From: Saccharothrix sp. NRRL B-16348
GTDB lineage: Bacteria; Actinomycetota; Actinomycetes; Mycobacteriales; Pseudonocardiaceae
Assembly (NCBI RefSeq): GCF_001280085.1
Contig: NZ_LGED01000208.1
Location: 124,001 to 188,000, forward strand
Reading direction: 5' to 3'
Length of the DNA stretch: 64,000 nt
Positions 45,002-64,000 of the stretch are shown piece by piece. Each line of letters starts with the position of its first letter. The stretch's first letter is position 1. The notes under the pieces are model-generated. The model was not told the origin of the DNA. It was given only the letters and a program-made list of their open reading frames with translations, and did not search any database. Both the position numbers and the translations under genes were made by a program.

Positions 45002-45864
<863 letters not shown>

Positions 45865-45865
<1 letters not shown>

Positions 45866-46860: not shown

Positions 46861-46871
46861 GTGTCCACTCC

Positions 46872-47069
46872 TCATGAGCGCCAGGACCCGGGAGGGTGGA
46901 ACCGCACTGGGGGGGTGCGGTTCCACCCGGCTCGGGGGCGTTCCGGGGTGCCGACGCGTCGCCGTGCGCCCGCCGCGAGGGCGAGCACGGCCGCGGTGAG
47001 CGCCGCGAGTTCGGTGTCGTCTGGGACACCGCCCCGGATCACCTGGATGGATGTCTGTCGCGCGGCCAT
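46872..47069 (-). CDS. Acyl-CoA carboxylase epsilon subunit
   Basis: A 65-residue protein with SIQVIRGGVPDDTELAALTA, the characteristic N-terminus of actinobacterial AccE/PccE subunits, and an Arg/Pro/Trp-rich tail. Epsilon stabilises the alpha-beta carboxylase complex. It overlaps the end of the beta-subunit gene by one base, the usual order in actinobacteria. No biotinylated alpha subunit is encoded here, so a chromosomal one must be shared. Confidence 0.88.
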   Translation of the reverse strand: MAARQTSIQVIRGGVPDDTELAALTAAVLALAAGARRRVGTPERPRAGWNRTPPVRFHPPGSWRS

Positions 47070-50258: not shown

Positions 50259-50954
50259 TCACGCCACTTCCTCTTCGTCGTGGTGCGCGCCCGAGACCTG
50301 GGGAATCTGGTAGCCGACGCCGCGCACCGTGGTGATGAACGCGTCGGTGCCCAGCTTGCCGCGCAGGCTGCTCACGTGCGTGTCGATGGTGCGGCTGGAC
50401 GCGCTCCAACTGCTGTCCCACACCTTCGACATCAACTCCTTGCGGGACACGACCGTCCCCGCGTTGGACGCCAGCGTGTAGAGCAGTTCGAATTCCTTGA
50501 TCGTCACGTCGATGACGCGACCTCCCAGGCGCACCTCGCGCAGCGTGCGGTCGATGCGGAGCTTGCACAGGGAGATGACGTCGTGGTCGGGCCGCCGCGG
50601 GTGCGTGCGACGCGCCACCGCCTCGATCCGCGCGGTCACCTCGCGCAGCCCGCAGGACCCCGTCACCACGTCGTCGGCACCAGCCTGGAGCGCCAGCACG
50701 CGCTCCAGCTCGTCGTCCTGGCGGGTGATGGCGATGATCGGTGTGTCGCTGATCTCCCGGATCGCCCGGCACACGGCCAACCCGTCCAGGTCCGGCAGCT
50801 CCAGGTCGAGCAGCACCATGTCCACGGTCGGGTGCACCTTCAACGCTTCGGACCCGGCGGCCACGCTGCTCGAGTCGTAGCCCAGTCGGCGCAGTGCGCT
50901 GACGAGCAACTCGGCCTCGACCGATTGTCCCCCTGCCACGAGTACGCGCAGCAT
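50259..50954 (-). CDS. Atypical OmpR-family response regulator (paralogue 1)
   Basis: 231 residues: receiver then winged-helix (ELMSKVWDSSWSASSRTIDT, ITTVRGVGYQIP). The phospho-acceptor Asp is present (MVLLDLELPDLDG, Asp50), but the N-terminal acidic pair is missing (VLVAGGQ instead of VVDDE) and the conserved Lys region reads VVTGSCGLREV. No histidine kinase gene lies nearby. It resembles JadR1-type regulators that respond to small molecules, not phosphorylation. GGAGG lies 11 nt before the ATG. It is placed between the PKS and AmCP operons. Confidence 0.88.
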   Translation of the reverse strand: MLRVLVAGGQSVEAELLVSALRRLGYDSSSVAAGSEALKVHPTVDMVLLDLELPDLDGLAVCRAIREISDTPIIAITRQDDELERVLALQAGADDVVTGSCGLREVTARIEAVARRTHPRRPDHDVISLCKLRIDRTLREVRLGGRVIDVTIKEFELLYTLASNAGTVVSRKELMSKVWDSSWSASSRTIDTHVSSLRGKLGTDAFITTVRGVGYQIPQVSGAHHDEEEVA

Positions 50955-51687
50955 CGTCTCGACGACCTCCCCAGTTTCCACTCTCTGACACCACGTGGCC
51001 ATGACGACGGACGCCCTGGACGAGTCGGCGGCGTTCCGGGGCGCGGTCGAACCGATGCCGCGCCTCGCGCCGCTATCGCGCGGTCTCCGCCGGCCGTGGG
51101 AACGGCCTGGCGCGCACCGCCGCCGGTACCACCATCGATTGCCGCGGTGACCAGCCCCACTCGTACCAAGCGCCACCCGGCACGTCAACAATTGTGACAC
51201 CCCATCGCATGGCGGTCATATTGCTGCGCCGCGACGGTGATCGGGAAGCCGGGCTCACCACAGTGGTGGCGACGGCGGGCAATTACCCACACCGTCGCCG
51301 GATACCCGGTTCGGCCGCATGCCGTCGTTCCCGCCGAGCGGATTCGCGTATTCACGGGTGTCGCGCGTGACATTCACCACCGGCGGACGGACGAACGCCC
51401 GACCGGATGACACGCCGCGTTGACATTGCGTAACCGGTTCGGCATCGCGAAGCACGGCGGTCGGGGCGTTCCCGTGCCCGGCACGACTGGGCGGACCCGG
51501 AACTTTTCCGCCTGCTCGCGCGTGACAGGATCAAAGGATCCCTTGACAGTTTTTGACAAACTCCTGACGCGGCGAGTCTTGACATCCGATGCGGCGGACA
51601 ATCGGATCGCCACCGCATCCGGGCGCACGGACGTGATTCCGGCGGAACGCATTCATCGGGCGCGCGACGGATCAGGGCGCGGGAGGC
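50955..51687. other. Long regulatory intergenic region between two regulator genes
   Basis: 733 bp separates the OmpR-type gene from the end of MerR. Short frames show no family. The notable content is a repeat element at 51542-51584 with an additional TGACAG at 51523. The region presumably carries the promoter and a long leader of the OmpR-type gene. Confidence 0.5.
51542..51584 (+). promoter_or_regulatory. Shared 43-bp direct-repeat element, copy A
   Basis: TTGACA at 51543, TTGACA at 51553, CCTGACG at 51563 and TTGACA at 51579: TGAC cores about 10, 11 and 15 bp apart, on one helical face. The element matches the minus-strand sequence 61232-61190 at 29 of 43 positions without gaps. Such arrays are typical for SARP or OmpR-type activators. 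Confidence 0.6.
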
Positions 51688-52241: not shown

Positions 52242-53525
52242 TCAGGGGTGCGCGGTGGTGGTGACGGGTGGTCCGACGAGGTCGCCGAGCACCTCGTCGA
52301 TCCGGTCGAGCGACGCCCGGATCCACGGCAGCACCAGCGGATCGGCGGCGGCCAGGGCGGCCGTGCGCTCCTCGTCGGTGTCGCCGTAGAGCCGGCTGGT
52401 GGAAGCGCGCAGCCGCAGCGCGTGCACGGGCTCGCCGAACGCGCTGCCGGGCAGCACTCCGACACCGTGGCGCTCCAGCAACCACCCGGTCAGCTCGGGC
52501 CCGGTGCGCACCCCGTGTGCCTGCGCCAGGTGCTCGCGCAGCGGCTCGAAGTCGGGGTACAGGTAGCAGGTCGCGCGAACCGGGGACACGAGCGCCCCGG
52601 CCGCGCCGAGCCGCCCGGCCACCGCCCGGGCGACGGCGGCGTGCAGCCGCCGGGACGCCGCGACGTGCTCGACCAGCTCGGCGGGCTCGGAGAAGGCGAG
52701 CGTGGCGGCCACCTGCACCGGTGCGACCGGACTGGACCAGATCTGGCTGGCCACGCCCACCAGCCGCTCCCGCAGCGCGTGGTCGCCGTCGGGCAGGCGG
52801 GCCACGCCCAGGCGCCACCCGCCCAGCGCGAGGCTCTTGGTGAGCCCCGTGGTCACGACCGTGCGCTCGGGTGCGAACCGGGCCGGTGAGGGCGCCGGGT
52901 CGTCGGTGTCGAACACCAGGTCGCAGTAGATCTCGTCGGACACGATCACCAGGTCCAGCTCTCGGGCGACCTCCGCGAGCCGGGCCACCGTCGCTGACGC
53001 GGTGACCGTGCCGGTGGGGTTGTCCGGCACGGTCACCACGACCGACCGCACCTGCCTGCCGGCGGCGCGCGCGGTGCGCACGGCCTCCCGCAGCAGGTCC
53101 GGGTCGGGCACCCCGCCCTCGCCCGGCCGGGTCCGGACGGGGATGGGGCGTGCGCCGGCTAGGTGGGCGTGCGCGGAGTAGCTCACCCAGCCGGGCACGG
53201 GGATCACCACGTCGCCGCCGATGGCCAGCAGCAGCGCGTACAACAGCGGTTTGCTGCCCGGCCCGGCCACCACCAGGTCCGGGTCGCACGCCAAGCCGCG
53301 CCGGGCCCAGTAGCCCGCGACCGCCGCCCGCAACGCGGCGCTGCCGGCCACCGGGCCGTACGAGTTCTCGCCGACCGCGCCGGCCAGCGCCGCCGCCGGC
53401 AGGGGGTGGACGGGCAACCCGATCTCACCGCTGCCCATCGCGAGCACGCGCTGGCCCGTGCGGCGCCTGCGCTCCAGGATCTCGTCGACGGCCAGGGTCG
53501 CCGACATGGTCACGGTCTCGGGCAC
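52242..53525 (-). CDS. Class I/II PLP-dependent aminotransferase
   Basis: 427 residues, fold type I. It has NSYGPVAGSAALRAAVAGYW near the N-terminus, VVVTVPDNPTGTVTAS (substrate and PLP binding), IVSDEIYCDLVF (PLP Asp and Tyr) and TTGLTKSLALGGWRLG (Schiff-base Lys). The C-terminal Arg for a substrate carboxylate is probably in LRLRAS. As last gene of the AmCP operon it may aminate an aldehyde or ketone on the carrier-bound intermediate, the role LysJ has in lysine biosynthesis, or transaminate the freed product. The GTG at 53525 has AGGAG six nt upstream. Confidence 0.9.
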   Translation of the reverse strand: MPETVTMSATLAVDEILERRRRTGQRVLAMGSGEIGLPVHPLPAAALAGAVGENSYGPVAGSAALRAAVAGYWARRGLACDPDLVVAGPGSKPLLYALLLAIGGDVVIPVPGWVSYSAHAHLAGARPIPVRTRPGEGGVPDPDLLREAVRTARAAGRQVRSVVVTVPDNPTGTVTASATVARLAEVARELDLVIVSDEIYCDLVFDTDDPAPSPARFAPERTVVTTGLTKSLALGGWRLGVARLPDGDHALRERLVGVASQIWSSPVAPVQVAATLAFSEPAELVEHVAASRRLHAAVARAVAGRLGAAGALVSPVRATCYLYPDFEPLREHLAQAHGVRTGPELTGWLLERHGVGVLPGSAFGEPVHALRLRASTSRLYGDTDEERTAALAAADPLVLPWIRASLDRIDEVLGDLVGPPVTTTAHP

Positions 53526-53546
53526 GATCAGCTCCTGGGGTTCGAG

Positions 53547-55163
53547 TCAGCTCGCGGCGTAGCGCTCCCGGAGCGCGGCCTTGCGGATCTTCCCGGTGAG
53601 GGTCTTGGGCAGGGCGTCGAGCAGTTCCACCCGGTCCGGTCGGAACCGGTCGTCCAGCCCGGCCGCCCGCACGTGCTCGCGCAGCTCGTCCGACGACGGC
53701 GCCCGCCCGCCGCTCGGCACGACGACCGCCAGGAGCACGTCACCGGCCGGCAGGCCGACCAACGCCGCCTCCGACACCAGCGGGTGGCTCTCCAGCACCG
53801 CCTCGACCTCGACCAGCGGCACGACGTGCCCGTCCCGGACGATGGCGTCCCCGGCCCGGCAGACGATCCGGATGCCGCCCAGGCCGTCGTGCCGGGCGAG
53901 GTCACCGGTGTCGAACCACCCCTGTGCGTCCAGGTGGGCGTCGAACACGTCCTGTCGTTTGTAGTAGCCGAGGCTCCGCGCCGCGCCCCGCGCCCACAGC
54001 CGGCCGATCGAGCCGTCGCCGGGCAGGCCCGTGGGATCGATGCGGACTTCCATCCCCGGTATCGCCCACCCGTTGCTGAACCCCGGCGTCGCTTCCGGGT
54101 CCTCGGTGCGGGTGATCGTCACCGGGCCGAACTCGGACATGCCCCACAGCGAGTACGTGCGCGCGCCCAGCACCTCCCGCAGGTCGTCGACCAACGCCGG
54201 CAGCACCGGCGCGGAACCGATGACCGCCTGCCGCAGGGTGCTGACGTCGCGCGGCCGCTCGCGCTGGGCGTCCCGCACCGCGACCAGGGTCGCGGGCGGC
54301 CCGTAGAGCAGGGTGGCGCGGTGCCGCTCGACCAGTTCCAGCAGCGCCGGGTTGTCCTTCACGTCCTGGAACGCGATCGTGCCGCCCACCAGGACGCCGG
54401 TCAGGACGCCTTGGCCGAACCCCGAGTAGTGCACCAGCGGCGTGGACACCGCCGCCACCAGGTCCTCGTCGAGGCCCAGCGTCGTGACGTAGCCCTGCAA
54501 GGCGCCGTAGAGCGTGTTCTGGCTGTGCAGCACGCCCTTGGACTCGCCGGTGGTGCCGGAGGTGAACAGCACCACGTACGGCTCGTCGGGGCCGAGCGCG
54601 AGGCCGTGCAGGTCGTGGCGCTCCTCCCACGGCACGTCCACGAAGTGCGCGTGGAAGTCCAGCGCCCCGTCGACCGGAGGACCGCCGACCACGAGGACGT
54701 GCTCCAGGCCGGGCAGCTCCGCCCGCAGCCCGACGACGACCTCCGCCAGCGGGTCGCCCGCCCACTCGGGGACGGTGACGCACACCCGCGCCCCGGTCAT
54801 CCCGAGCCGGTGCCGCAGCTCGCTCTCCGGGCAGATCGGCGAGATGGGGCAGATGACCGCGCCGACCGCCATGCACGCGAACATCAGCGGGACCATCTCC
54901 CACCGGTTGGGCAGCTGCACGGCAACGAAGTCGCCGCGCCGCACGCCGAGCTCCAGCAGGGCGCCCGCGAACCGGTCGGTCAGCCGGGACAGCTCGGCAT
55001 AGTCGAAGGTCTCCGTGCGGGACGCGGCGATCCGGCGGGCCGCGACGGCCGTCTTGTGCGGGCGTTCCCGGGCCTGGCGGCGCAGGTCGTCCAGGAACGT
55101 CTCGGACCGCCACCACCCCCGCCGCAGGTAGTCGGCCGCGCGGTCCTGGTCCACCGCGGTCAC
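53547..55163 (-). CDS. Adenylate-forming (ANL) acid-CoA ligase-like enzyme
   Basis: 538 residues. P-loop-like VVLFTSGTTGESKGVLHSQN, SLWGMSEFGPVTITR, GWFDTGDLARHDGLGGIRIV and C-terminal LPKTLTGKIRKAALRERYAA (catalytic Lys) show a complete two-domain ligase. It activates a carboxylic acid as an acyl-AMP for transfer to CoA, a carrier or an amine. No free carrier protein gene other than LysW and no condensation domain is nearby. It might join the amino acid and polyketide parts, or activate one of them. The GTG start overlaps the dehydrogenase stop (GTGA). Confidence 0.9.
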   Translation of the reverse strand: MTAVDQDRAADYLRRGWWRSETFLDDLRRQARERPHKTAVAARRIAASRTETFDYAELSRLTDRFAGALLELGVRRGDFVAVQLPNRWEMVPLMFACMAVGAVICPISPICPESELRHRLGMTGARVCVTVPEWAGDPLAEVVVGLRAELPGLEHVLVVGGPPVDGALDFHAHFVDVPWEERHDLHGLALGPDEPYVVLFTSGTTGESKGVLHSQNTLYGALQGYVTTLGLDEDLVAAVSTPLVHYSGFGQGVLTGVLVGGTIAFQDVKDNPALLELVERHRATLLYGPPATLVAVRDAQRERPRDVSTLRQAVIGSAPVLPALVDDLREVLGARTYSLWGMSEFGPVTITRTEDPEATPGFSNGWAIPGMEVRIDPTGLPGDGSIGRLWARGAARSLGYYKRQDVFDAHLDAQGWFDTGDLARHDGLGGIRIVCRAGDAIVRDGHVVPLVEVEAVLESHPLVSEAALVGLPAGDVLLAVVVPSGGRAPSSDELREHVRAAGLDDRFRPDRVELLDALPKTLTGKIRKAALRERYAAS

Positions 55164-56287
55164 CGGCCCGCCTCGCGCCGTGCCGCCAGCAGTTCCGGCA
55201 GCGGGTCGCCGGCCCGCCCGGCGGCGATCTCCAGCAGGTCCCGCGTGTTGCGCTCGACGCGCGTGCCCACCCAGTCGAACACCCACTGCTTGCGGGCCTC
55301 GCCCGGCAGCTCGAACGGCACGGTGCCGGTGAGCGCCAGACCCGCCGCCGCGGCACCACCGACGTTCGCGACCACGTCCGGCACCAGCGTCACGCCCGCC
55401 GCGGCCATCCGGACCCCGGCCTCCGGGGTGGTGGTGATGTTGCCGCCCTCGACGACCAGCTGGGCGGTCAGCCGGTGCACGTTGTCGCCGTTGATCGCGT
55501 CCTTCTGCGCGGCCAGCACGAGCACGTCGGCGGGCACGTCCAGCCAGGCGTCGGGCTCGGCGGTCGCCTTGACGTTCTGCGGGAGCTTGGTGCGGTCGAT
55601 CCGGCCGAGCGGGTCGGTGATCGCGATCAGGTCGTCGACGGGCAGGCGGTAGCCGCTGATGGTGCCGAACTCGTCGGCCACGCCCACGATCCGGTGGCCA
55701 CGCCGTTCGAGGAACCGCGCCGCCGCGCGGCCCACGGAGCCGAAGCCCTGGATGACGACCGTGCCGGGTTCGTTGCGGCGCAATGTCTCCAGCGCGGTCA
55801 CCGCCGCGACGCCGACGCCGTGGCCGGTGCAGTCGACCAGCGGTTCGTAGTAGGTGCGCCAGTCGTAGGGCATGGGCGCGGCGCGCGGTCGCTTGCGCGG
55901 GTCGTACCCGGCGGCGTCGAAGAACACCGCGCGTTCGGCCGGCCCGACCCCGAGGTCGGCACCCAGGTGGATGCCGCCGTGCAGCAGCGGCGCGACGGTG
56001 CGGCCGAACGTCTCCAGCGTCCGCCGGCTGTCCTGGCCGGCCACGATCCCGGCCTTCGCGCCGCCGACCGGCAGACCGACGAGCGTCAGCTTCTCGGTCA
56101 TGCCCCTGGCCAGGCCGCGCACCTCGTCCTCGGTGACCGAGGACGTCATGCGGACACCGCCCATCGCCCACCCGTCGACCAGCGAGTCGACGACCACCCA
56201 GCCCTTGATGCTGCGGTTGTCGCCGTTGAGCGCGACGACGAAGGCCGGTTCCTCGACCTGCACCGCGTTGATGTCGAGAACAGTCAT
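55160..56287 (-). CDS. Glu/Leu/Phe/Val dehydrogenase-like protein
   Basis: 375 residues of the ELFV family. GMTEKLTLVGLPVGGAKAGI contains the catalytic Lys region, and VVIQGFGSVGRAAARFLERR is the NAD(P) loop. The C-terminal region has GGNITTTPEAGVRMAAAGV. Canonical members interconvert amino acids and 2-oxo acids with ammonia. In this operon it may reductively aminate a 2-oxo group made by the homocitrate-synthase-like enzyme. The start at 56287 was chosen over a GTG at 56302 that would almost abut the amidotransferase stop. Confidence 0.88.
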   Translation of the reverse strand: MTVLDINAVQVEEPAFVVALNGDNRSIKGWVVVDSLVDGWAMGGVRMTSSVTEDEVRGLARGMTEKLTLVGLPVGGAKAGIVAGQDSRRTLETFGRTVAPLLHGGIHLGADLGVGPAERAVFFDAAGYDPRKRPRAAPMPYDWRTYYEPLVDCTGHGVGVAAVTALETLRRNEPGTVVIQGFGSVGRAAARFLERRGHRIVGVADEFGTISGYRLPVDDLIAITDPLGRIDRTKLPQNVKATAEPDAWLDVPADVLVLAAQKDAINGDNVHRLTAQLVVEGGNITTTPEAGVRMAAAGVTLVPDVVANVGGAAAAGLALTGTVPFELPGEARKQWVFDWVGTRVERNTRDLLEIAAGRAGDPLPELLAARREAGR

Positions 56288-56304
56288 TTTCCTGACCCCC
56301 ACGG

Positions 56305-56868
56305 TTAGTTGAACAGTTGGACGAAGCCCCGGAGCACGGACAGGCCGTCGGCGCGGAACTCCAGGTGTGCCTGCGAGCCGTAGACGCGGCCGTCGTCGGA
56401 GCGGATGAACTCCACCGGCGCGTCGTCGGACCAGCCGATGGCCTTGAACCCGAGCGGGGCCGCCTTCAGGTAGAGCATGTGGCGCTGGAACAGCGAGACC
56501 GTCGGCTTGGCCTCCGAGAACACCGGCTCCTGCTTGTCGAGGTGCACCTCGTGCCGGCCGACCCGGGACCTGCCCGGCACGAGTTCAGCGCCCGCGGCGG
56601 TGCCGATGATCTGCATGCCGCCGCAGATGCCCCACACCGGGACGGTCGAGGTGAAGACCAGGTCGGTCAGCCGGCGGTAGAAGTCGCTGTCGTACGCGCG
56701 GACCTTCGTGCCGCTCAGCACCAGCGCCTGGTAGCGCGGGCCGAGGCGGTCGGGCACCTCGGCGGCCCGCACCAGGTCCGTCTCGGCGCCCAGTACCTCG
56801 AAGCTCTTGCGGACCTGGGGGATCGACAGGCTCCCGTTGTCCACCACGAGCACACGCGGGGACGTCAT
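56305..56868 (-). CDS. Free-standing class I glutamine amidotransferase
   Basis: 187 residues resembling the GuaA amidotransferase half. The nucleophile elbow is VWGICGGMQIIG with Cys, and the remaining triad lies in YGSQAHLEFRAD (His and Glu). It is complete for glutaminase or gamma-glutamyl hydrolase activity, but no synthetase partner is fused or adjacent. In this operon it could supply ammonia, or act on the gamma-glutamyl bond of the carrier protein. GGAG nine nt before the ATG supports the start. It is not part of standard LysW operons. Confidence 0.88.
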   Translation of the reverse strand: MTSPRVLVVDNGSLSIPQVRKSFEVLGAETDLVRAAEVPDRLGPRYQALVLSGTKVRAYDSDFYRRLTDLVFTSTVPVWGICGGMQIIGTAAGAELVPGRSRVGRHEVHLDKQEPVFSEAKPTVSLFQRHMLYLKAAPLGFKAIGWSDDAPVEFIRSDDGRVYGSQAHLEFRADGLSVLRGFVQLFN

Positions 56869-56903
56869 GTCCAGTACTCCTCTCACTGCTGTGCGTTGTG
56901 CGG

Positions 56904-57710
56904 TCAGGTTCTGGTGATGACCGTCCCGGTGGACCCACCGAGCAGTTCCGACACGGGGGCACTGCCGATGACGACCCGCTCGACCCCGCCGTCCAGACCC
57001 TCGCCGGCGGCCCGCAGCTTCTTGCGCATACCGCCGGTGGCGCCCTTGTCCCGGAACTCCCGGGCGGCGGCGGCGCTGATCCGCCGCACCGGCTTGCCGT
57101 CGACCAGCAGGTACGGCACGTCGGTGACGAGGGTCAGCGCCGGTGCGCCGGTGGCCGCCGCGATGGCCGCCGCGGCCCGGTCGGCGTCGGTGTTGACCAC
57201 CCGGCCCGCCGCGTCCCGGGCCAGCGGGGTGACCAGGACGCAATGCCCCTTCCCGTGGCCGGTCAGGGCGGTCGGGTCCACCCTCGCGATCGGGCCGACC
57301 AGGTTGTCGATCTCGACGAGTTCCTTGCCGCGCCAGTACCACCGCTCGCCGGGGCCCGCGTGCAGCGTGCCGTCGCTGCCCAGCAGCCGCGAGGCGGTGA
57401 CGCCGTGCTTCTCCAGCCTGGCGATCACCTCGTCCGCCAGCGTCGCGCTGACCTTCAGGATGTCCTCGATCACCTCGGGCGTGGTCCACCTGCTCTGGTT
57501 GCCGTACCGGTCGCGCAGCACGGCCGACGGCTCGCGGTAGCGGGACGCCAGGCGCTTGAGCGGCTTGGACCAGCCGTGCACCAGCACCAGGGGGTTCTCC
57601 CGCGCGTGGCCGGCCAGGTCCTCCCACCACGCGTCGTCCATGTCCTCCAGGCAACTGCCGCCGAGCTTGACGACGGTGGCGTTCACGTGGGCGCCCGGTT
57701 CCGCGCTCAT
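56904..57710 (-). CDS. LysZ/ArgB-like amino acid kinase acting on carrier-bound substrate
   Basis: 268 residues of the amino acid kinase family. VVKLGGSCLEDMDDAW at the N-terminus binds ATP phosphates, NPLVLVHGWSKPL follows, then NTDADRAAAAIAAATGA and KGATGGMRKKLRAAGEGLDG near the C-terminus. In LysW systems this enzyme phosphorylates the side-chain carboxylate of the amino acid attached to the carrier. The ATG overlaps the LysY stop (ATGA). Substrate chain length (glutamate or aminoadipate) cannot be told from sequence. Confidence 0.9.
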   Translation of the reverse strand: MSAEPGAHVNATVVKLGGSCLEDMDDAWWEDLAGHARENPLVLVHGWSKPLKRLASRYREPSAVLRDRYGNQSRWTTPEVIEDILKVSATLADEVIARLEKHGVTASRLLGSDGTLHAGPGERWYWRGKELVEIDNLVGPIARVDPTALTGHGKGHCVLVTPLARDAAGRVVNTDADRAAAAIAAATGAPALTLVTDVPYLLVDGKPVRRISAAAAREFRDKGATGGMRKKLRAAGEGLDGGVERVVIGSAPVSELLGGSTGTVITRT

Positions 57711-58777
57711 GCCGGCATCACCGGTTGCATGGTCAGGCCCGTCTCCTCGGGCAGCGAGTACCGCTTGTTGATCGCCTGCACCGCCTGCCCGGCCGCACCC
57801 TTGACGAGGTTGTCCAAAGCGGACAGCACGACGATCCGACCACCATCCGGGTCGTGCATGACCGCGACGTCGCAGAAGTTCGAACCCAGCGTCGCCTGCG
57901 GGTCGGGCACCGGGATCAGCGTCTCGTCGTTGCGCCGCACTCGGACGAACGGGTGCGAGCGGTAGAAGCGCCGGTACGCCCGGGACAGCGTGCGCTCGTC
58001 CACCTCGTCGCGGGTGAGCACGTAGCAACTGGCCAGCAGGCCGCGCACGTTCGACACGCCGTAGGCGGACATCGACACCGTGCCGACCGTCCCCGGCTTG
58101 CCGCGGCCGAGGAAGTCGCTCACCTCGGCGGCGTGCCGGTGCCCGGTGGGCGAGTAGGGCGCGATGGCGCCCGCCCGGAACGGGTGCAGGTCGGACGTGC
58201 GCAGGTGCACGCCGCCGCCGCTGGACCCGCTCTTGCCGTCCACCAGCACGTGGTCCAGGTGCATGCCCAGCTCGAAGACCAGCGGGGCGAGGCCCAGCGT
58301 GATGGCGGTGGCGTAGCAGCCGGCGAGCGAGATGAGCGGTGCTCCCACCATCTGTTCGCCGACCAGTTCCGGCACGCCGTAGACGAAGCGGTCGGCGAGG
58401 CCGTCGGCCCGCGCCACCTTCGGGTACCACTTGTGGTGCGATTCGTCGTCACGGATGCGGAACGCGCCGCTCAGGTCGATCACGCACGCCACCCGGTCGG
58501 CGAACAGCGCGGCCAGTTCGGCCGACACCGACGCGGGCGTGGACAGCAGCAGCACGTCGACCCGGTCGGCGACGTCCTCGGTCACCTCCTCGACCACCAG
58601 GCCGAGGTCCCGCCGCAACCCGGGGTGCAGTTCCGAGGGCCTGCGGCCGGCGTGCCGCGACCCGCCCAGGAACGTCAGCTCCAGGTCCGGGTGCTGGCAC
58701 ACCAGCCGGATCAGCTCGCCACCGGCCAGCCCGGATGCCCCGACCACGCCGACGCGGATCTTCCCGTCCCCGCTCAT
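57707..58777 (-). CDS. LysY/ArgC-like acyl-phosphate reductase for carrier-bound substrate
   Basis: 356 residues. VGVVGASGLAGGELIRLVCQ is the NADP loop, SLAGCYATAITLGLAPLVFE holds the catalytic Cys, and SPTGHRHAAEVSDFLGR the catalytic His. It reduces the phosphate ester made by the LysZ homologue to an aldehyde while the amino group is masked by the carrier. It overlaps both neighbours by four bases. Length and motifs are normal for the family. Confidence 0.92.
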   Translation of the reverse strand: MSGDGKIRVGVVGASGLAGGELIRLVCQHPDLELTFLGGSRHAGRRPSELHPGLRRDLGLVVEEVTEDVADRVDVLLLSTPASVSAELAALFADRVACVIDLSGAFRIRDDESHHKWYPKVARADGLADRFVYGVPELVGEQMVGAPLISLAGCYATAITLGLAPLVFELGMHLDHVLVDGKSGSSGGGVHLRTSDLHPFRAGAIAPYSPTGHRHAAEVSDFLGRGKPGTVGTVSMSAYGVSNVRGLLASCYVLTRDEVDERTLSRAYRRFYRSHPFVRVRRNDETLIPVPDPQATLGSNFCDVAVMHDPDGGRIVVLSALDNLVKGAAGQAVQAINKRYSLPEETGLTMQPVMPA

Positions 58778-59622
58778 CCGAGCACCTCCCTGACGTACCG
58801 ACCGATCGCCGAGGCGACGTCCACACCGCTCGTGGTGGCCACCGCCCGGAAGCCGGGCGCGTGGTTGACCTCGTTGACCACGTAGCCGTCCCCGGTCCGG
58901 AACAGGTCGATGCCGTAGATCCCGCCGCCGAGCTGTTCGACCACCGCGTCCACGATCCGCGTGATCGGGGCGTCCCGTTCCACCACGCTGTGGTGGGAGC
59001 CGATGGCCGCGTTGTTGCGCCAATCCGTGCCGTTGCTCTCGAACCGCGCGGTGGCCACGATCTCGCGGCCGACGACCAGGCAGCGGACCGAACCACCGCC
59101 GAGGAACGGCTCGACCAGGCACGCCTGTTCGAACGCATGACCCAGGTCTTCGACGTAGTCGTAGACGGAGTTCGCGGTGTCCGGGTCGCGGAGGAGGGTC
59201 ACCCGCTTGCCCATGCCGCCGAAGATCGGCTTGAGCACCAGCGGAAAGGGCAGTTCCGCCAGCGCCTTGCGGAAGTCCTGACGCGACAGGACGAGGCGGA
59301 AGTCGGGCACCGGCACACCTGCCCGGCGCAGCAGGACCCGCAGCGCCAGTTTGTTCTCACAGGCCTGGATGACCGCGGCGGTGTTCAACACGGGGATGCG
59401 CGCGGCCTCGGCGAGCGAGGCCAGCAGACCGCCGCGGGTGTAGCTGCGGCTGCGGATCAGCACCACGTCGTAGCTCTTCAGCGCGTCGGCGTCCTCGTCA
59501 CCGAGGCACAGCGCCTCGTCGTTGACCCACTCGACCTCCAAGCCGTGCTCCGGGCCGCGGTCGATGAGTTGCCGCTCCTCCCAACTGACGCGGTCCGCCA
59601 CGATGGCGACCTTGCCACCCAT
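58774..59622 (-). CDS. LysX-like ATP-grasp ligase attaching the amino acid to the carrier
   Basis: 282 residues of the RimK/LysX ATP-grasp family. VLNTAAVIQACENKLALRVL, PLVLKPIFGGMGKRVTLLRD (ATP-binding Lys and glycine loop) and DGYVVNEVNHAPGFRAV (metal-binding Glu and Asn near the C-terminus) are in the expected order. LysX/ArgX enzymes join the alpha-amino group of aminoadipate or glutamate to the gamma-carboxyl of the carrier's last residue. Here the carrier ends in Gln, so this enzyme or a partner must cope with that. It lies 37 bp after the carrier gene. Confidence 0.92.
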   Translation of the reverse strand: MGGKVAIVADRVSWEERQLIDRGPEHGLEVEWVNDEALCLGDEDADALKSYDVVLIRSRSYTRGGLLASLAEAARIPVLNTAAVIQACENKLALRVLLRRAGVPVPDFRLVLSRQDFRKALAELPFPLVLKPIFGGMGKRVTLLRDPDTANSVYDYVEDLGHAFEQACLVEPFLGGGSVRCLVVGREIVATARFESNGTDWRNNAAIGSHHSVVERDAPITRIVDAVVEQLGGGIYGIDLFRTGDGYVVNEVNHAPGFRAVATTSGVDVASAIGRYVREVLG

Positions 59623-59659
59623 GTGCTTTCCCCCTTCTCGGGAAGCGCTGCTCGGTCGA

Positions 59660-59842
59660 TCACTGGCCCCAGTCGCGCAACTGCACCTCGACCACCTGGA
59701 GGACGAGCGTGCCGTCCTGGACCTCGTCGACCCGCAGTGTCAACAGGCACTCGGGGCAGGACATCGTCTCGCCCTGGATCATGGGCGGGGTGGACAGCGG
59801 GGTCTCGCACTCGGGGCAGGCACCTGCCAGCATCTGCGTCAT
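59660..59842 (-). CDS. LysW-type amino-group carrier protein with C-terminal Gln
   Basis: 60 residues. ACPECETPLSTPP and MSCPECLLTLRVDEV hold the two CxxC pairs of the LysW zinc ribbon. The acidic second half leads to the C-terminus LRDWGQ. Canonical LysW ends EDWGE, whose last Glu side chain carries the substrate. Here the final codon is CAG, and I confirmed the frame base by base against the TGA at 59660-59662. Position between a homocitrate-synthase-like gene and LysX supports the identity. The Gln may be deamidated by the operon's amidotransferase or mark a different attachment chemistry. Confidence 0.9.
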   Translation of the reverse strand: MTQMLAGACPECETPLSTPPMIQGETMSCPECLLTLRVDEVQDGTLVLQVVEVQLRDWGQ

Positions 59843-59861
59843 GTCCGGTCCTCCTGTCTCG

Positions 59862-61040
59862 TCAGCTGTGCTGGAACTCGGTGGCGTGCTTGCGGATGGC
59901 GTCGCGGTCCAGGAGCGGACGGCCGTCCTCCTCCTGCCTGCGCGCCAACCAGGTGCAGAAGGCGTCGAGGTCGACGTCGAGGTCCGAACCGGACAGAGCC
60001 CACGCGATCAGGGGCTTGGTGAACCGCGTGCGGACGCGGAGCTCGCGGCGGTTGCCGACCTGGTCGGGCGGCAGCGTCTCGTACGCCTCGGGGTGGGAGA
60101 GCTGGCCGGGCAGCTCGTAGGCGAAGGCGTGCGGCGTGGTGGGGCCGGACATGAAGGACTCGCCGAGGCCGGACCCGCTCAGCGCCGCGTCCGTGAGGGC
60201 CGTCAGGTGCGACAGGTCGAACCGGTCGTCGCCGTAGACGACCCGCAGCGACGTCAGCACCTCGGCCAACGGGGCGTTGCCGCCGCGCTCGCCGATGCCG
60301 CCCGCGGTGGCCGAGATCCACTCGGCGCCCGCTTCGTAGGCGGCCAGCGAATTGGCCGTGGCCATGCCGAGCATGTTGTGCGAGTGGATCTCGATCTCCG
60401 CGCCGTCGATGGCGGTGAGGTCCGAGATCACGTCGTACATCTGCCACGGCGCCAGGTAGGCGACCGTCTCGGCCAGCCGGAACCGGTCCGCGCCCGCGCC
60501 GAAGCCCGCAGCCACGTACGAGACCAGCCGCTCCCTCTCGGTGCGCGCACCGTCCTCGCCGCTGAAGGTGACGTGGAAGCCCCGTTCCTTGGCCATGTCG
60601 ATGGCGGCGTTCGCCACCGCGATGAGGTACTTGGTGCTCGGCGACGCGAGTTTGAGGGCGGCGTGCTCGGCCGACGTCGGGATCGACAGCATGACCGACC
60701 GGACGCCCAGGTGCTTGGCCTCGTCCAGTGCCTTGGCCACCTGCCGGCGGTCGCGCACCACCACCAGCGTGAGGCACTTGTCCGGGCCGACCGCCTCGTG
60801 CGCGGCCTCGATCATGTGGGTGTCGCCGGACTTCGAGCCGGAGATCATGCCGACCTCGACCAGCTCGACGCCGGTCTTGACCAGCAGCCGGGCGATGTAG
60901 GCCGTGGCCTCGGCGCCGAACTCGACGCCCGCCATGTGCGCGGAGTCGCGCAGCGTGGCGTCGGAGACGCTCGGTAGCGGCCGCGGTGTCCGCCCGCCGA
61001 CGGCGAGGAGACCCTCCCCGTCGTGTTCTCTTCCTGCCAT
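59862..61040 (-). CDS. Homocitrate/isopropylmalate synthase-like (DRE-TIM) enzyme
   Basis: 392 residues. SDATLRDSAHMAGVEF is the DRE-type metal and base motif, ISGSKSGDTHMIE follows, then FSGEDGARTERERL, AEIEIHSHNMLGMATANSLA (metal His-x-His) and GGIGERGGNAPLAEV, typical of the homocitrate, citramalate and isopropylmalate synthase branch rather than HMG-CoA lyases. These enzymes condense acetyl-CoA with a 2-oxo acid. It is first in the AmCP operon, so it probably makes or extends the carbon skeleton loaded on the carrier. No aconitase or isocitrate-type dehydrogenase follows, unlike in lysine synthesis. GGAGG precedes the ATG. Confidence 0.88.
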   Translation of the reverse strand: MAGREHDGEGLLAVGGRTPRPLPSVSDATLRDSAHMAGVEFGAEATAYIARLLVKTGVELVEVGMISGSKSGDTHMIEAAHEAVGPDKCLTLVVVRDRRQVAKALDEAKHLGVRSVMLSIPTSAEHAALKLASPSTKYLIAVANAAIDMAKERGFHVTFSGEDGARTERERLVSYVAAGFGAGADRFRLAETVAYLAPWQMYDVISDLTAIDGAEIEIHSHNMLGMATANSLAAYEAGAEWISATAGGIGERGGNAPLAEVLTSLRVVYGDDRFDLSHLTALTDAALSGSGLGESFMSGPTTPHAFAYELPGQLSHPEAYETLPPDQVGNRRELRVRTRFTKPLIAWALSGSDLDVDLDAFCTWLARRQEEDGRPLLDRDAIRKHATEFQHS

Positions 61041-61389
61041 GACCGTCCACTCCTCCCTAGAGGAAGTGCTCCTGGGTTTCGCAGTGCCGACCGCGCGGGC
61101 GTTCCGAAAAAGGGTGGATTGCCGTTACTCGCGAATCGAGTCCGCGGCGTCCTCTGCTGACCAAAAGCTTGGTCGTTCGCGGTCGGCACGGTCAAGATCC
61201 GGAACGTCAGGCCTTTGTGAAGCTTTGTCATGCGGATGTCGGACGCCGAAAAGTCGTGCAAGATCGACGTGGGCGACTGTCGAATAGCCTTTTCGGCGCT
61301 TGTCGGCCGACCCGGCCCGGCATTACCGTGGGTCGAATACCGACGCAGCGGCCGCGGCCGAGTGCCACCTGGTGGATGGGTGCAGTCGC
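61041..61389. promoter_or_regulatory. Divergent promoter region of the AmCP operon and the racemase-like gene
   Basis: 349 bp between divergent starts. It holds the 43-bp shared element (61190-61232) and a palindrome GACCAA-AAGC-TTGGTC at 61159-61174, both upstream of the AmCP operon. No protein-coding frame is supported. Confidence 0.55.
61190..61232 (-). promoter_or_regulatory. Shared 43-bp direct-repeat element, copy B
   Basis: On the minus strand it reads TGACA, TCACA, CCTGACG and TTGACC with core spacings of about 10, 11 and 15 bp, matching copy A (51542-51584) at 29 of 43 positions without a gap. It lies about 150-190 bp before the AmCP operon start and points toward it. Confidence 0.6.
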
Positions 61390-62118
61390 ATGGCAGTTTC
61401 CACCCCGCTCCGACTCGGGATGGTCGTCCCGCCGGAGAACCCGAACGCCGAACCCGAGCTGCACCGTTTCCTGGGATCCGCGATGCACCTGCACGTCATG
61501 CGCTTCCCGCTCACCCCCGGCAAGGGGCTGCGCGAGATGCTGGAGACCTACGACGAGGTGCTGCCGCAGGTGCTGGCGAACTTCGGCGGCCTGCCGCTGG
61601 ACGCCGCGGTCGTCTCGTGCAGCGGCTCGCACTACCTGCTCACGCCGAACGGCGACCGGGAGCTCTGCGCGAGGCTGAGCGAGCGCATGGGCATCCCCGT
61701 GCACTCCTCGACGCTGGCGAGCCTCGCGGCGTTGGAGGCGCTGGGCGTGACGAAGCTGAACCTGGTGTCGCCCTACGAGCCGTGGCTCACCGAACTGTCA
61801 CGGCGGTACTGGACCGACGCCGGCCTGGAGGTCGGTCAGGTGGTCTCCGTGCGGGCCGGCGGGCGCCACGCCCCGTACCGGGTCACGACCGCGGAGATCG
61901 TGGCACGCCTGCGCGCCGAGGACCCCGACCCCACCGTGCCGCTGCTGTTCACCGGGACGGGCATGGCCACCGCGGCGGCGCTGGAGGAGTCGGTCCGCGA
62001 CGGGCGCGGGGTGCTGCTCACGTCGAACCTGGCCAGCGCGTGGTGGGCCCTGCGCGTCACGGGTGCGCCCGCGGACGGCGACCCGCTGCTGGCCCGGCTG
62101 GCGCGCGCGGCGGCCTGA
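61390..62118 (+). CDS. Asp/Glu racemase superfamily protein (maleate isomerase/arylmalonate decarboxylase-like)
   Basis: 242 residues. VVSCSGSHYLLTPNGDREL has the first catalytic Cys; LLTSNLASAWWALRV near the C-terminus corresponds to the second loop but has Ser/Thr instead of a second Cys. A single-Cys pattern is known in arylmalonate decarboxylases, and two Cys in racemases and maleate isomerases. It could isomerise or decarboxylate a dicarboxylate in the AmCP pathway. It is divergent from the AmCP operon across a shared regulatory region and converges with the OmpR-type gene after 21 bp. Confidence 0.82.
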   Translation: MAVSTPLRLGMVVPPENPNAEPELHRFLGSAMHLHVMRFPLTPGKGLREMLETYDEVLPQVLANFGGLPLDAAVVSCSGSHYLLTPNGDRELCARLSERMGIPVHSSTLASLAALEALGVTKLNLVSPYEPWLTELSRRYWTDAGLEVGQVVSVRAGGRHAPYRVTTAEIVARLRAEDPDPTVPLLFTGTGMATAAALEESVRDGRGVLLTSNLASAWWALRVTGAPADGDPLLARLARAAA

Positions 62119-62139: not shown

Positions 62140-62802
62140 TCAGCCGCCGTGCCCGATGCGGTAGCCGACGCCCCGCACGGTCTTGATCCACGAACTGGAG
62201 CCGAGCTTGGCGCGCAGGCTGCTGACGTGGGTGTCGATCGTCCTGCTGGACCTGGTCCAGATGTCGTTCCAGATCTTGGCCATCAGCTCCTTGCGGGAGA
62301 TCACCGCCTCGGGGTTGGCGGCGAGCGCGCACAGCAGCTCGAACTCCTTGGCCGTCACCTCGACCAGCCGGCCGTCCAGCCTGACCTCGCGGGTCCGCCG
62401 GTCGATGCGCAGCAGGCAGAGCGAGATGAGGTCGGGGTGCTGCGGGCGGGCCCTGGCCCGGCGCGTCACGGCCTCGATGCGGGCCATCACCTCGCGGAAC
62501 CCGCACGACCGCACCACGCAGTCGTCCGCGCCGGCCCGGAGCGCGAGCACCCGGTCGAGTTCCGTGTCGCGGTTGGTGATCGCGATGACGGGCGTGCCGC
62601 CGTCGGCCCTGATCGCACGGCACAGCTCCAGGCCGTCGACGTCCGGCAGCTCCAGGTTGAGCAGCACGAGGTCGGTGCCGCGGTGCGCGCGGCGCGCCTC
62701 GGTCCCGGTGGTCACGGTGGTCACGTCGTAGCCCTGCCTGCGGAGGTCGCGCGCCAGCGCACCGCTCCCCTGGCCCTTCTGCTCGACGATGAGCAACTGC
62801 AT
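62140..62802 (-). CDS. Atypical OmpR-family response regulator lacking the phospho-acceptor Asp (paralogue 2)
   Basis: 220 residues, closely similar to the regulator at 50.3 kb. The winged helix is intact (ELMAKIWNDIWTRSSRTIDT, KTVRGVGYRIGHGG). In the receiver the phospho-acceptor position is Asn (LVLLNLELPDVDG, Asn49), the acidic pair is absent (LLIVEQKG) and the Lys region reads VVRSCGFREV. Phosphorylation is therefore unlikely, and a ligand-binding receiver is the probable mode. No kinase gene is nearby. The ATG at 62802 was chosen; a GTG at 62811 is also possible. Confidence 0.88.
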   Translation of the reverse strand: MQLLIVEQKGQGSGALARDLRRQGYDVTTVTTGTEARRAHRGTDLVLLNLELPDVDGLELCRAIRADGGTPVIAITNRDTELDRVLALRAGADDCVVRSCGFREVMARIEAVTRRARARPQHPDLISLCLLRIDRRTREVRLDGRLVEVTAKEFELLCALAANPEAVISRKELMAKIWNDIWTRSSRTIDTHVSSLRAKLGSSSWIKTVRGVGYRIGHGG

Positions 62803-63331
62803 GGCGACCACTTATCGGGAGGGCCGGCCGCGACGCGCGAGTCCGGCGACCCGGCCACCGGCGGACCACGTCGGATCGTCACCCGACCGTCGCGGTAATC
62901 GGCCGGGCCGGGCCGGGCCGCCGCCCGTTCCCGGCGAATTCCCGCCAACGTCCACCTGTCGTGGGCACCACGAACCCATATTCCCCATCCCCCTCGTTCG
63001 GCAGACCGCACGGAATCACTCGACCCTCGACGTGCTCCCCAAGGTAATCAGTGAACCGCACCCGGTCGGTCCCGCCAAACAGACCAACTCTCCGCACTCG
63101 TGGCGGCGTTCCGCAATCGGTCTCCGGGTTCCTGTCGGAATGGCGGCAGCCGCGTTCGCGGACGGGAAACAACCCGAGTCGCGAGCACGGCGACCGGACG
63201 CGCGGCGTACGGTGGTGCGTGTCTCCGTAACGCGGTGGCGGGCTCGGGCACCGGTCACCACAGGCTGTGACCTACGTCACATCGAGCGGGCTTGACCTTC
63301 ACATTTATGTGAGGCTTTGAGCATACGTGAC
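62803..63331. promoter_or_regulatory. Divergent promoter region of regulator 2 and the MFS gene
   Basis: 529 bp without a supported gene. Near the MFS start it contains a Crp/GlxR-like site (63266-63281), a second palindrome TCACAT-TT-ATGTGA (63299-63312), and TGACATGTCA overlapping the start codon at 63327-63336. Confidence 0.5.
63266..63281. promoter_or_regulatory. Crp/GlxR-type binding site
   Basis: TGTGACCTACGTCACA is an exact match to the actinobacterial GlxR/Crp consensus TGTGA-NN-TA-NN-TCACA, 50 bp upstream of the MFS start. It suggests cAMP-dependent or other Crp-family control. Confidence 0.6.
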
Positions 63332-64000
63332 ATGTCAACGTCGCACACAGCGTTACCGCCCGGCTCCACCGCCGTGGAGGGCCGGAAACTCCCCTTGTCA
63401 CCGCTGCTGGCATTGGCCACGGCGGCCTTCATGGTGATCCTGACCGAGGCGCTGCCCGCCGGTGTGCTGCCCGAGATGGCCGCCAGCCTGTCGGTCAGCG
63501 AGTCCGCGGCGGGGCAGGCGCTGACGATCTACGCCGTCGCCACCGGCCTCGCGGCGATCCCCATGTCCGCGATCACGGCGACCTGGCGGCGCAAGCCGCT
63601 CATGCTGATGGCGGTGGGCGGGTTCGCCCTCGCCAACATGGTCACGGCCTTCTCGTCCAACTACCTGCTGACCATGCTGTTCCGGTTCATCGGCGGGGTG
63701 GCCGCGGCCGTCGTGTGGGGACTGCTGGTCGCCTACGCCCGCCGGCTGGCGCCCGCGCACCTGCAGGGCCGGGCCATCGCGATCACCATGGCGGGCATCC
63801 CGCTCGCCCTGTCCCTCGGCATCCCGGCGGGCACGTTCCTCGGTGGGCTGTTCGGCTGGCGGCTGACGTTCGCCCTGGTGACCGTCGTCTCCCTGGTCCT
63901 GGTGGGGTGGATCTTCGCGTCCGTGCCGGACTACCCGGGACAGCGGCCGGAGCACCGGCAACCGATCCTGAAGGGTTTCGCCATCCCCGGTGTGGGGGCG
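63332..64000 (+). CDS. MFS transporter (DHA1 type), cut by the window edge
   Basis: 223 codons are visible from ATG 63332 and the frame is open at the right edge. The protein starts with a short Pro/Ser-rich leader, then membrane helices: LLALATAAFMVILTEALPAG, QALTIYAVATGLAAIPMSAI, motif A-like TATWRRKPLMLMAVGGFALA, RFIGGVAAAVVWGLLVAYAR and IPAGTFLGGLFGWRLTFALV. This pattern resembles AraJ-like and chloramphenicol-type exporters. It may be a second exporter of the cluster or belong to the next locus. Crp-like and palindromic sites lie upstream. Confidence 0.88.
   Translation, partial: MSTSHTALPPGSTAVEGRKLPLSPLLALATAAFMVILTEALPAGVLPEMAASLSVSESAAGQALTIYAVATGLAAIPMSAITATWRRKPLMLMAVGGFALANMVTAFSSNYLLTMLFRFIGGVAAAVVWGLLVAYARRLAPAHLQGRAIAITMAGIPLALSLGIPAGTFLGGLFGWRLTFALVTVVSLVLVGWIFASVPDYPGQRPEHRQPILKGFAIPGVGA

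What the first reader, a model, noticed from the sequence alone, without database searches (positions are those of the whole stretch)
52242..61040. A nine-gene amino-group carrier protein (AmCP) operon beside a modular PKS, with an unfamiliar gene set
LysW, LysX, LysY and LysZ homologues are recognisable by motif. LysW systems are established for lysine and arginine synthesis and for a few Streptomyces secondary metabolites. Here they are combined with a homocitrate-synthase-like enzyme, a free glutamine amidotransferase, an ELFV dehydrogenase, an adenylate-forming ligase and an aminotransferase, in one tightly coupled operon next to a short PKS. I know of no described product from this combination. 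Inference: a carrier-masked amino acid aldehyde is elaborated, freed, and joined to the polyketide.
Basis: partly seen in the sequence, partly recalled or inferred. Interest (0 to 1): 0.85.

Follow-up and report, generated by a model that had tools for sequence, protein, structure and literature searches.

The report
Gln-ended carrier in iso-maleimycin-type operon
This is a small-molecule gene cluster of the kind recently tied to the natural product iso-maleimycin, and its amino-acid carrier protein ends in glutamine instead of the glutamate normally used to hold the cargo, beside a glutaminase-like enzyme that could both unlock the carrier and release the product.

Summary
The nine-gene operon (61040 to 52242, minus strand) is real and the gene assignments hold. 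The combination is not without a described product: a 2025 paper (PMC12022981) shows that a cluster with an isopropylmalate-synthase-like gene, LysW, RimK/LysX and an AMP ligase is needed for iso-maleimycin, and three strains it names as carrying similar clusters are among my nine-gene loci. The PKS is probably a mere neighbour: a PKS ketosynthase hit lies in only 2 of 64 related loci (up to 10 kb per side). What I did not find described is the carrier chemistry. LysW here ends in DWGQ, not EDWGE. In 392 genomes of one genus (Streptomyces, by contig match), 24 of 24 such operons have a Gln-ended LysW, the homocitrate-synthase-like gene and the GATase, and no M20 peptidase or transketolase. Of 38 other LysX+LysY loci, none has the GATase or synthase, 36 have the M20 peptidase, and all 36 LysW tails found end in Glu. 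I infer that the GATase replaces the LysK-type releaser, hydrolysing the gamma-glutamyl bond that holds the product, and also deamidates the new carrier's Gln, as Dop does for Pup. No enzyme has been assayed.

The parts
59862..61040 (-). HMGL-like / homocitrate-synthase-like enzyme, probable C-C bond former on the carrier-bound aldehyde
   Evidence: PF00682 160 bits, but NifV 196 bits against cut-off 463; best PDB kin homocitrate and isopropylmalate synthases; motif RDSAH, with R31, D32, A34 and H35 invariant in 24 aligned and all five at 97% or more of 64 rows, where the three synthases aligned have R(D/E)GEQ
59660..59842 (-). LysW-like amino-group carrier protein with C-terminal ...RDWGQ
   Evidence: Last codon CAG; 61 CAG and 3 GAG in 64 distinct loci including this one (two duplicate rows taken out); 125 of 127 database relatives end RDWGQ
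58774..59622 (-). LysX-type ATP-grasp ligase
   Evidence: RimK and LysX_preATP_grasp domains; GGMGKR where EDWGE-type LysX has GSWG[RH]
57707..58777 (-). LysY-type (ArgC family) phosphate reductase
   Evidence: TIGR01850 323 bits, over the cut-off of 233.6
56904..57710 (-). LysZ-type amino acid kinase
   Evidence: PF00696; NF010659 [LysW]-aminoadipate kinase 117 bits, below its cut-off of 223
56305..56868 (-). free-standing class I glutamine amidotransferase, proposed carrier deamidase and product-releasing hydrolase
   Evidence: PF00117 62 bits; C82, H168, E170 invariant in 25 aligned; in 62 of 64 named loci, the other two (L088, L095) cut by contig ends
55160..56287 (-). ELFV-family amino acid dehydrogenase
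   Evidence: PF00208 and PF02812
53547..55163 (-). AMP-forming acyl ligase
   Evidence: PF00501 236 bits
52242..53525 (-). class I/II PLP aminotransferase
   Evidence: PF00155 149 bits
51688..52074 (-). MerR-family regulator, recurring neighbour
   Evidence: PF13411; match in 32 of 64 named loci
61300..62118 (+). Amdase-like protein, recurring neighbour
   Evidence: PF17645; relative in 34 of 64 named loci
62140..62811 (-). OmpR-type response regulator, recurring neighbour (a second one at 50259-51200)
   Evidence: PF00072 and PF00486; match in 52 of 64 named loci
63317..64000 (+). MFS exporter, cut by the window end (continues to about 64537)
   Evidence: 66% identity over 393 aa to the recurring MFS, which is PF07690; relative in 51 of 64 named loci

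Best explanation
The operon makes an iso-maleimycin-type small cyclopentene-fused maleimide (or close kin) through amino-group carrier chemistry of a new branch. Proposed route: LysX joins an acidic amino acid to the carrier LysW; LysZ and LysY turn its distal carboxylate into an aldehyde that cannot cyclise because the amine is masked; the HMGL-like enzyme adds a small carbon unit to the aldehyde; the GATase cuts the gamma-glutamyl bond and frees the chain; the aminotransferase, ELFV dehydrogenase, ligase and an FAH-fold protein just past the window then form the ring and imide; an MFS pump exports it. The special feature is that the carrier is encoded with a C-terminal Gln, whose side-chain amide blocks loading. 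The GATase, an enzyme class that hydrolyses gamma-glutamyl amides, first deamidates it to Glu and later hydrolyses the product's gamma-glutamyl link. It thus replaces the M20 (LysK-type) releaser of Glu-ended systems, as Dop both deamidates and removes Pup (Pup/Dop recalled). Shown: gene content, tails, replacement pattern. Inferred: every reaction.
For: Replacement pattern: of 392 genomes of one genus, 61 have LysX-like matches, 70 places; 68 read. 24 of 24 strong matches: synthase, GATase, Gln tail, no M20, no transketolase. 44 weak matches: 0 GATase, 0 synthase; of the 38 with LysY, 36 have M20, and 36 tails were found, all EDWGE or EDFGE. Earlier set: 19 Glu-type loci, 19 M20, 0 GATase; 64 named loci, 0 M20. 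The tail is only Gln or Glu in 64 distinct loci (61 and 3) and 127 proteins (125 and 2), as expected if the side-chain carbonyl is the reactive site. The three Glu-ended loci (L080, L092, L096) keep the GATase with its triad, so it does more than deamidate. Five six-gene relatives without matches to ELFV or ligase keep the GATase. The LysX motif that recognises EDWGE (GSWGR, per PMC10433800) reads GG[ML]G[KR]R in the Gln branch. Product link: deletion of lysW-rimK abolishes iso-maleimycin, adding the cluster to S. coelicolor gives it, and three named strains match (L033, L035, L058).
Against: No assay. All 15 solved relatives of the GATase are GMP synthases, so an ammonia-supplying role is equally natural by sequence. 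Three Glu-ended carriers coexist with the GATase, so deamidation is not required everywhere. The two LysX branches are each one clade, so the co-occurrence may rest on very few evolutionary events; the 24-to-36 count is not a set of independent trials. Why an amide cap would be useful is unexplained.
Confidence: 0.5

Rival explanations
1. The GATase supplies ammonia for the imide nitrogen, acting with the AMP-forming ligase in GMP-synthetase-like fashion; release from the carrier is done by a host peptidase or spontaneously.
For: All 15 solved relatives found are GMP synthases; the operon holds an AMP-forming ligase; the published product is a maleimide, which needs an imide nitrogen.
Against: GATase is kept in five six-gene loci without matches to this ELFV dehydrogenase or ligase (L078, L082, L090, L091, L096), and was not seen in any locus with the M20 releaser. 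It does not explain the Gln tail.
Confidence: 0.25
2. LysX joins the substrate to the main-chain carboxylate of the terminal residue, as RimK is recalled to do, so the side chain is irrelevant and Gln and Glu are interchangeable.
For: LysX is in the RimK family (TIGR00768 over its cut-off); Gln and Glu both occur; the EDWGE-recognising motif is changed.
Against: Only Gln or Glu is found in 64 distinct loci and 127 proteins; an irrelevant side chain should drift. A peptide bond would need a carboxypeptidase, and none of the nine operon genes is one.
Confidence: 0.12
3. Different building blocks within the same scheme: carrier-bound aspartate semialdehyde plus pyruvate (an aldolase reaction) rather than glutamate semialdehyde plus acetyl-CoA.
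For: Conserved RDxxH in the HMGL-like enzyme where the aligned synthases have Gln; aldolases such as DmpG are recalled to have His there. Asp plus pyruvate gives seven carbons with the hydroxyl on the middle carbon, as iso-maleimycin should have if achiral (my inference from the paper's 'two achiral substrates').
Confidence: 0.4
4. One reading: the carrier-made amino acid is released and joined to the product of the adjacent PKS.
For: The PKS lies on the same strand, its nearest large ORF beginning at 45005, about 7 kb from the operon's end.
Against: Ketosynthase hits in 2 of 64 named relatives; iso-maleimycin formation in QL37 was independent of the angucycline PKS, and the two products meet only in a later Diels-Alder reaction.
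Confidence: 0.04
5. A lysine or arginine pathway.
For: LysW, LysX, LysY and LysZ homologues.
Against: No aconitase-type, isocitrate-dehydrogenase-type or LysK gene among the operon genes and scanned neighbours; DapF and a separate ArgC elsewhere in the genome.
Confidence: 0.01

Closest known systems
iso-maleimycin cluster BGC23a of Streptomyces sp. QL37 and the putative maleimycin cluster of S. showdoensis (PMC12022981)
   Same: Isopropylmalate-synthase-like gene, LysW, RimK/LysX and an AMP ligase; Streptomyces sp. SM11, S. filamentosus and S. shenzhenensis, named there as having similar clusters, carry all nine genes here (L035, L058, L033).
   Different: 'Amidotransferase' and 'homocitrate' do not occur in the paper's main text, and the sections read do not discuss the carrier tail.
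Glu-ended amino-group carrier clusters of actinobacteria (vazabitide type; type name recalled)
   Same: LysW, LysX, LysY, LysZ logic; a carbon-carbon bond former nearby.
   Different: In the 19 loci they have M20 peptidase (19), transketolase (18) and often a DegT aminotransferase (13), with EDWGE or EDFGE tails (18 found) and GSWG[RH]; this branch has DWGQ, GGMGKR, GATase and an HMGL-like synthase.
LysW/ArgW lysine and arginine pathways of Thermus and archaea
   Same: Carrier, ligase, kinase and reductase homologues.
   Different: C-terminal Glu essential there (E54A mutant is an arginine auxotroph, PMC10433800); LysK/ArgE releaser; a GATase is not known to me there (recalled).
Pup and Dop of actinobacterial pupylation (recalled)
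   Same: Small protein encoded with C-terminal Gln, deamidated to Glu before gamma-ligation; one enzyme both activates and releases.
   Different: Unrelated proteins; Dop is glutamine-synthetase-like (recalled), here a class I GATase; analogy only.

Membership tests
LysW amino-group carrier family | Two CxxC zinc-binding pairs | tested here: met
   C9, C12, C29, C32 invariant in the 10 aligned
LysW amino-group carrier family | C-terminal EDWGE with terminal Glu as attachment site | tested here: not met
   Encoded tail RDWGQ, codon CAG; could be met after deamidation, which was not testable
LysW amino-group carrier family | Partner ligase with GSWGR motif | tested here: not met
   GGMGKR here; GG[ML]G[KR]R in all 67 rows of its branch, two of them duplicates
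LysW amino-group carrier family | LysZ kinase and LysY reductase partners | tested here: met
   LysZ is below its NCBIfam cut-off
LysW amino-group carrier family | M20-type LysK releasing peptidase | tested here: not met
   0 of 64 named loci at E < 1e-5 with one M20 query, 0 of 24 loci of the one-genus sample at E < 1e-6 with six queries; none of the operon genes
iso-maleimycin BGC (BGC23a type) | IPMS-like gene, LysW, RimK/LysX and AMP ligase together | tested here: met
iso-maleimycin BGC (BGC23a type) | Same cluster in strains the authors name | tested here: met
   L033, L035, L058 have all nine genes; QL37 and MBT70 themselves were not among the loci retrieved
iso-maleimycin BGC (BGC23a type) | Sequence homology to QL37 genes | not tested
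   QL37 sequence not among the loci retrieved
iso-maleimycin BGC (BGC23a type) | Production of iso-maleimycin | not testable with these tools
   needs metabolite analysis
homocitrate / 2-isopropylmalate synthase | Curated family score | tested here: not met
   NifV 196 bits against cut-off 462.9; the other 24 families shown also below
homocitrate / 2-isopropylmalate synthase | R(D/E)GEQ active-site motif | tested here: not met
   RDSAH; three alignments
homocitrate / 2-isopropylmalate synthase | HxH metal site and GxGER.GN loop | tested here: met
   H219, H221, G248, G250, E251, R252, G254 and N255 invariant in 24 aligned
class I glutamine amidotransferase | Cys-His-Glu triad | tested here: met
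   C82, H168, E170 invariant in 25 aligned; assignment of the triad recalled
Pup/Dop deamidation system | Terminal Gln converted to Glu before ligation | not testable with these tools
   Gln present; conversion needs mass spectrometry

The most novel reading that the evidence does not exclude
A whole branch of biosynthetic carrier proteins in Actinomycetota is translated in an amide-locked form (C-terminal Gln) and depends on a dedicated GATase that first unlocks the carrier by deamidation and then releases the finished amino acid from the same gamma-glutamyl position. This would be an independent, small-molecule counterpart of the Pup/Dop switch, and a second releasing chemistry for amino-group carriers, paired with a new HMGL-type carbon-carbon bond former on carrier-bound aldehydes.
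Probability: 0.35. Interest if true: 0.8.

Novelty: new variant of a known kind. Interest (0 to 1): 0.6.

Why it matters
If right, amino-group carrier biosynthesis has two chemically distinct branches told apart by one C-terminal residue, and deamidation serves as an activation switch in natural-product biosynthesis. It gives each core gene of the iso-maleimycin-type cluster a testable role. It offers a simple genome-mining rule (Gln-ended LysW plus GATase plus HMGL-like synthase); the six core genes were found together in 60 of 64 named loci from many actinobacterial genera. It also explains where an orphan cluster beside an unrelated PKS belongs.

Tried and rejected
GATase as deamidase only: rejected as sole role, because three Glu-ended loci keep an intact GATase. 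Operon coupled to the PKS: rejected (2 of 64 loci with KS hits). Lysine or arginine pathway: rejected. C-terminal Gln as a one-off error: rejected (61 of 64 distinct loci; 125 of 127 proteins). The TK_31 transketolase query was dropped because it gave scattered short hits; counts use TK_30 and five queries without TK_31. Alignment A1 mixed strands for some rows and was replaced by A2. LysW in the one-genus sample was found by pattern, not by model; two Glu-branch loci (L185, L188) gave no tail. The recurring 300-residue neighbour had no Pfam match; its model (pLDDT 93) matches FAH-superfamily folds. Not tried: complex prediction of GATase with LysW; neither was modelled (both jobs went to the FAH-fold protein and the HMGL-like enzyme).

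Papers: PMC12022981 read in part (abstract; sections 3, 7, 8 and 13; first of three parts of section 4; passages); PMC10433800 passages only. The founding amino-group carrier papers (vazabitide and later) did not come up as held papers and were seen only as references in PMC12022981, so prior notice of the Gln tail there cannot be excluded. Searches run; apart from the two papers named only listings and abstract beginnings were seen, and none of those mentions a Gln-ended LysW.
Full report
Observation. The nine genes are present at the stated place, on the minus strand, packed with small gaps or 4-base overlaps. Two sit far from their nearest curated families: the homocitrate-synthase-like protein reaches 196 bits against a NifV cut-off of 463, and LysW is below Pfam cut-offs while matching NF041070 at E 4e-9 (36 bits, cut-off 75). 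The PKS is real, with a KSQ loading domain (VDSGQSS) and ORFs at 45005-36858, 36833-32172 and 32150-28254, the last ending in a thioesterase.

LysW ends LRDWGQ, with last codon CAG. In described LysW and ArgW proteins the tail is EDWGE and the terminal Glu carries the cargo on its gamma-carboxyl; replacing it by Ala makes a haloarchaeon an arginine auxotroph (PMC10433800, passages). A Gln has no free gamma-carboxyl.

Family. A search with LysX found 14 of 390 genomes of the window's family, its own included, and, in named genomes, 64 loci. All nine genes were found in 52 of these 64, and the six-gene core (synthase, LysW, X, Y, Z, GATase) in 60. In 46 of the 52 the best hits are collinear on one strand; the other six are L043, L051, L055, L061, L063 and L092. 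The core is incomplete in L081, L086 and L088, which are cut by contig ends, and in L095, whose GATase side is cut. L038 and L050 are cut before the aminotransferase; L084 lacks a match to it in an uncut stretch. Five loci have the core with a GATase but without matches to this ELFV dehydrogenase, ligase or aminotransferase (L078, L082, L090, L091, L096), though L090 and L096 show weak aminotransferase matches (57 and 51 bits). L026-L028 are alike (L027 is the same place as L090). Of those scanned, the L090 locus holds a RidA-type protein and the L091 and L029 (same place as L096) loci an ATP-grasp protein.

Tail statistics. Of 66 rows with a readable LysW of this type, 63 end in CAG (Gln) and 3 in GAG (Glu: L080 Actinopolyspora alba, L092 Rhodococcus qingshengii, L096 Amycolatopsis anabasis). 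Of 127 database proteins from two searches (the second listed its best 120 of 230; one is a 34-residue fragment), 125 end in Gln and 2 in Glu. No other residue occurs in either set. A tree of 84 LysX rows puts all 19 Glu-type rows in one clade and the 65 rows of this type in the other; the tail needs three changes (short search, some long branches).

Replacement test. I then sampled 392 genomes of one genus with the window's LysX at E 1e-20: 61 genomes, 70 places. The scores are bimodal, with nothing between 1e-119 and 1e-33. I read 68 of the 70 places; the other two, in G532 and G562, had been read before as L120 and L117. All 24 strong matches have synthase, GATase and a Gln tail and no M20 or transketolase match; 23 of them have all nine genes, L163 only the core. 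Among the 44 weak matches none has synthase or GATase; 38 of 44 have M20. Of the 38 with LysY, 36 have M20 (L186 begins at a contig start, L207 is a 4.9-kb contig), and the tail was found in 36, all EDWGE or EDFGE (not found in L185 and L188). Four weak matches (L165, L167, L190, L200) have a lone LysX relative without the rest. Some strong matches are the same genomes as named loci, so the two sets are not independent. Before that, 19 Glu-type loci gave M20 in 19, transketolase in 18, GATase in 0 and synthase in 0. In both sets the GATase stands where the M20 releaser is absent, and the HMGL-like synthase where the transketolase is absent. Fisher's exact value for 24 against 36 tails is 3e-17, but the loci share ancestry and the number of independent events is small.

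Ligase motif. Of 19 Glu-type LysX rows 16 read GSWGR, two GSWGH and one SSWGR; PMC10433800 states that GSWGR recognises EDWGE. The Gln-type branch has GG[ML]G[KR]R in all 67 rows, two of them duplicates. The three Glu-ended members keep the branch's motif, so they look like secondary changes within the branch.

Mechanism. Class I GATases hydrolyse the side-chain amide of glutamine (established knowledge). The same chemistry would deamidate a C-terminal Gln and would cleave a product amine held on that gamma-carbon. The Cys-His-Glu triad is intact in the 25 aligned, including the three Glu-ended loci. Persistence of the GATase with Glu tails argues that release is its lasting task and unlocking an added one. 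The best rival is ammonia supply to imide formation, since all 15 solved relatives found are GMP synthases.

Product. PMC12022981 (JACS 2025) reports that BGC23a of Streptomyces sp. QL37, with a 2-isopropylmalate-synthase-like gene, LysW, RimK and an AMP ligase, is required for iso-maleimycin (deletion of lysW and rimK), that introducing BGC23 into S. coelicolor already carrying the lug cluster gave iso-maleimycin, and that a homologous putative maleimycin cluster lies in S. showdoensis. It names Streptomyces sp. SM11, S. filamentosus and S. shenzhenensis among the strains with clusters similar to both BGCs; these are L035, L058 and L033 here, each with all nine genes. The main text has no occurrence of 'amidotransferase' or 'homocitrate', and the sections read give no enzymatic scheme. 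I did not have the QL37 sequence.

Boundaries. Past the window end the contig continues with the MFS exporter, the FAH-fold protein and two acyl-CoA-dehydrogenase-like proteins, relatives of each of which occur in 14 of 64 loci. KS hits occur in 2 of 64 loci (L054, L080), within the stretches held, which are up to 10 kb per side and shorter at contig ends. The operon is therefore most likely an autonomous cluster that here adjoins a PKS cluster with its own crotonyl-CoA reductase, ketoacyl synthase III and carboxyltransferase.

Verdict. The operon belongs with a cluster type whose product was tied down in 2025, so as an unfamiliar operon it is less novel than claimed. The carrier branch it uses is, as far as the searches of the held literature show, undescribed and makes a sharp, cheap prediction.

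Noticed in passing
L139:3592-4833 and L139:4836-6101 (window 65592-66833 and 66836-68101): Two adjacent acyl-CoA-dehydrogenase-like genes beyond the window end; relatives of each occur in 14 of 64 related loci; possible late oxidation or desaturation enzymes.
   Followed up: partly
window 45865-49926: Beta-ketoacyl-ACP synthase III, a carboxyltransferase and a crotonyl-CoA carboxylase/reductase next to the PKS, suggesting its own unusual starter or extender unit.
   Followed up: no
window 44290-44650 approx.: The loading KSQ domain is interrupted by a long Gly/Glu/Arg-rich low-complexity insertion.
   Followed up: no
L043 (same place as L147): The Streptomyces echinatus locus has two Gln-ended LysW genes by pattern (L147; a second best-hit position for L043); P0111 and P0114 are also two LysW entries of one Actinocrinis assembly.
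   Followed up: no
L029:10159-11568 (L096:8586-9995 by position): In Amycolatopsis anabasis an ornithine/DAP-decarboxylase-like PLP gene lies between LysW and LysX, and an ATP-grasp amino acid ligase nearby: probably a different product from the same six-gene core.
   Followed up: no
L043:444-1688 and relatives: A DDE-type transposase-like protein recurs beside the operon in 25 of 64 loci, which seems often for a passing insertion element.
   Followed up: no
G000:C231:79204-80271: A third ArgC-family gene in the window's genome, with no LysW, LysX or LysZ match in the 20 kb around it.
   Followed up: partly
window 50259-51200 and 62140-62811: Two related OmpR-type response regulators flank the operon on both sides (60% identical over 221 aa).
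   Followed up: no
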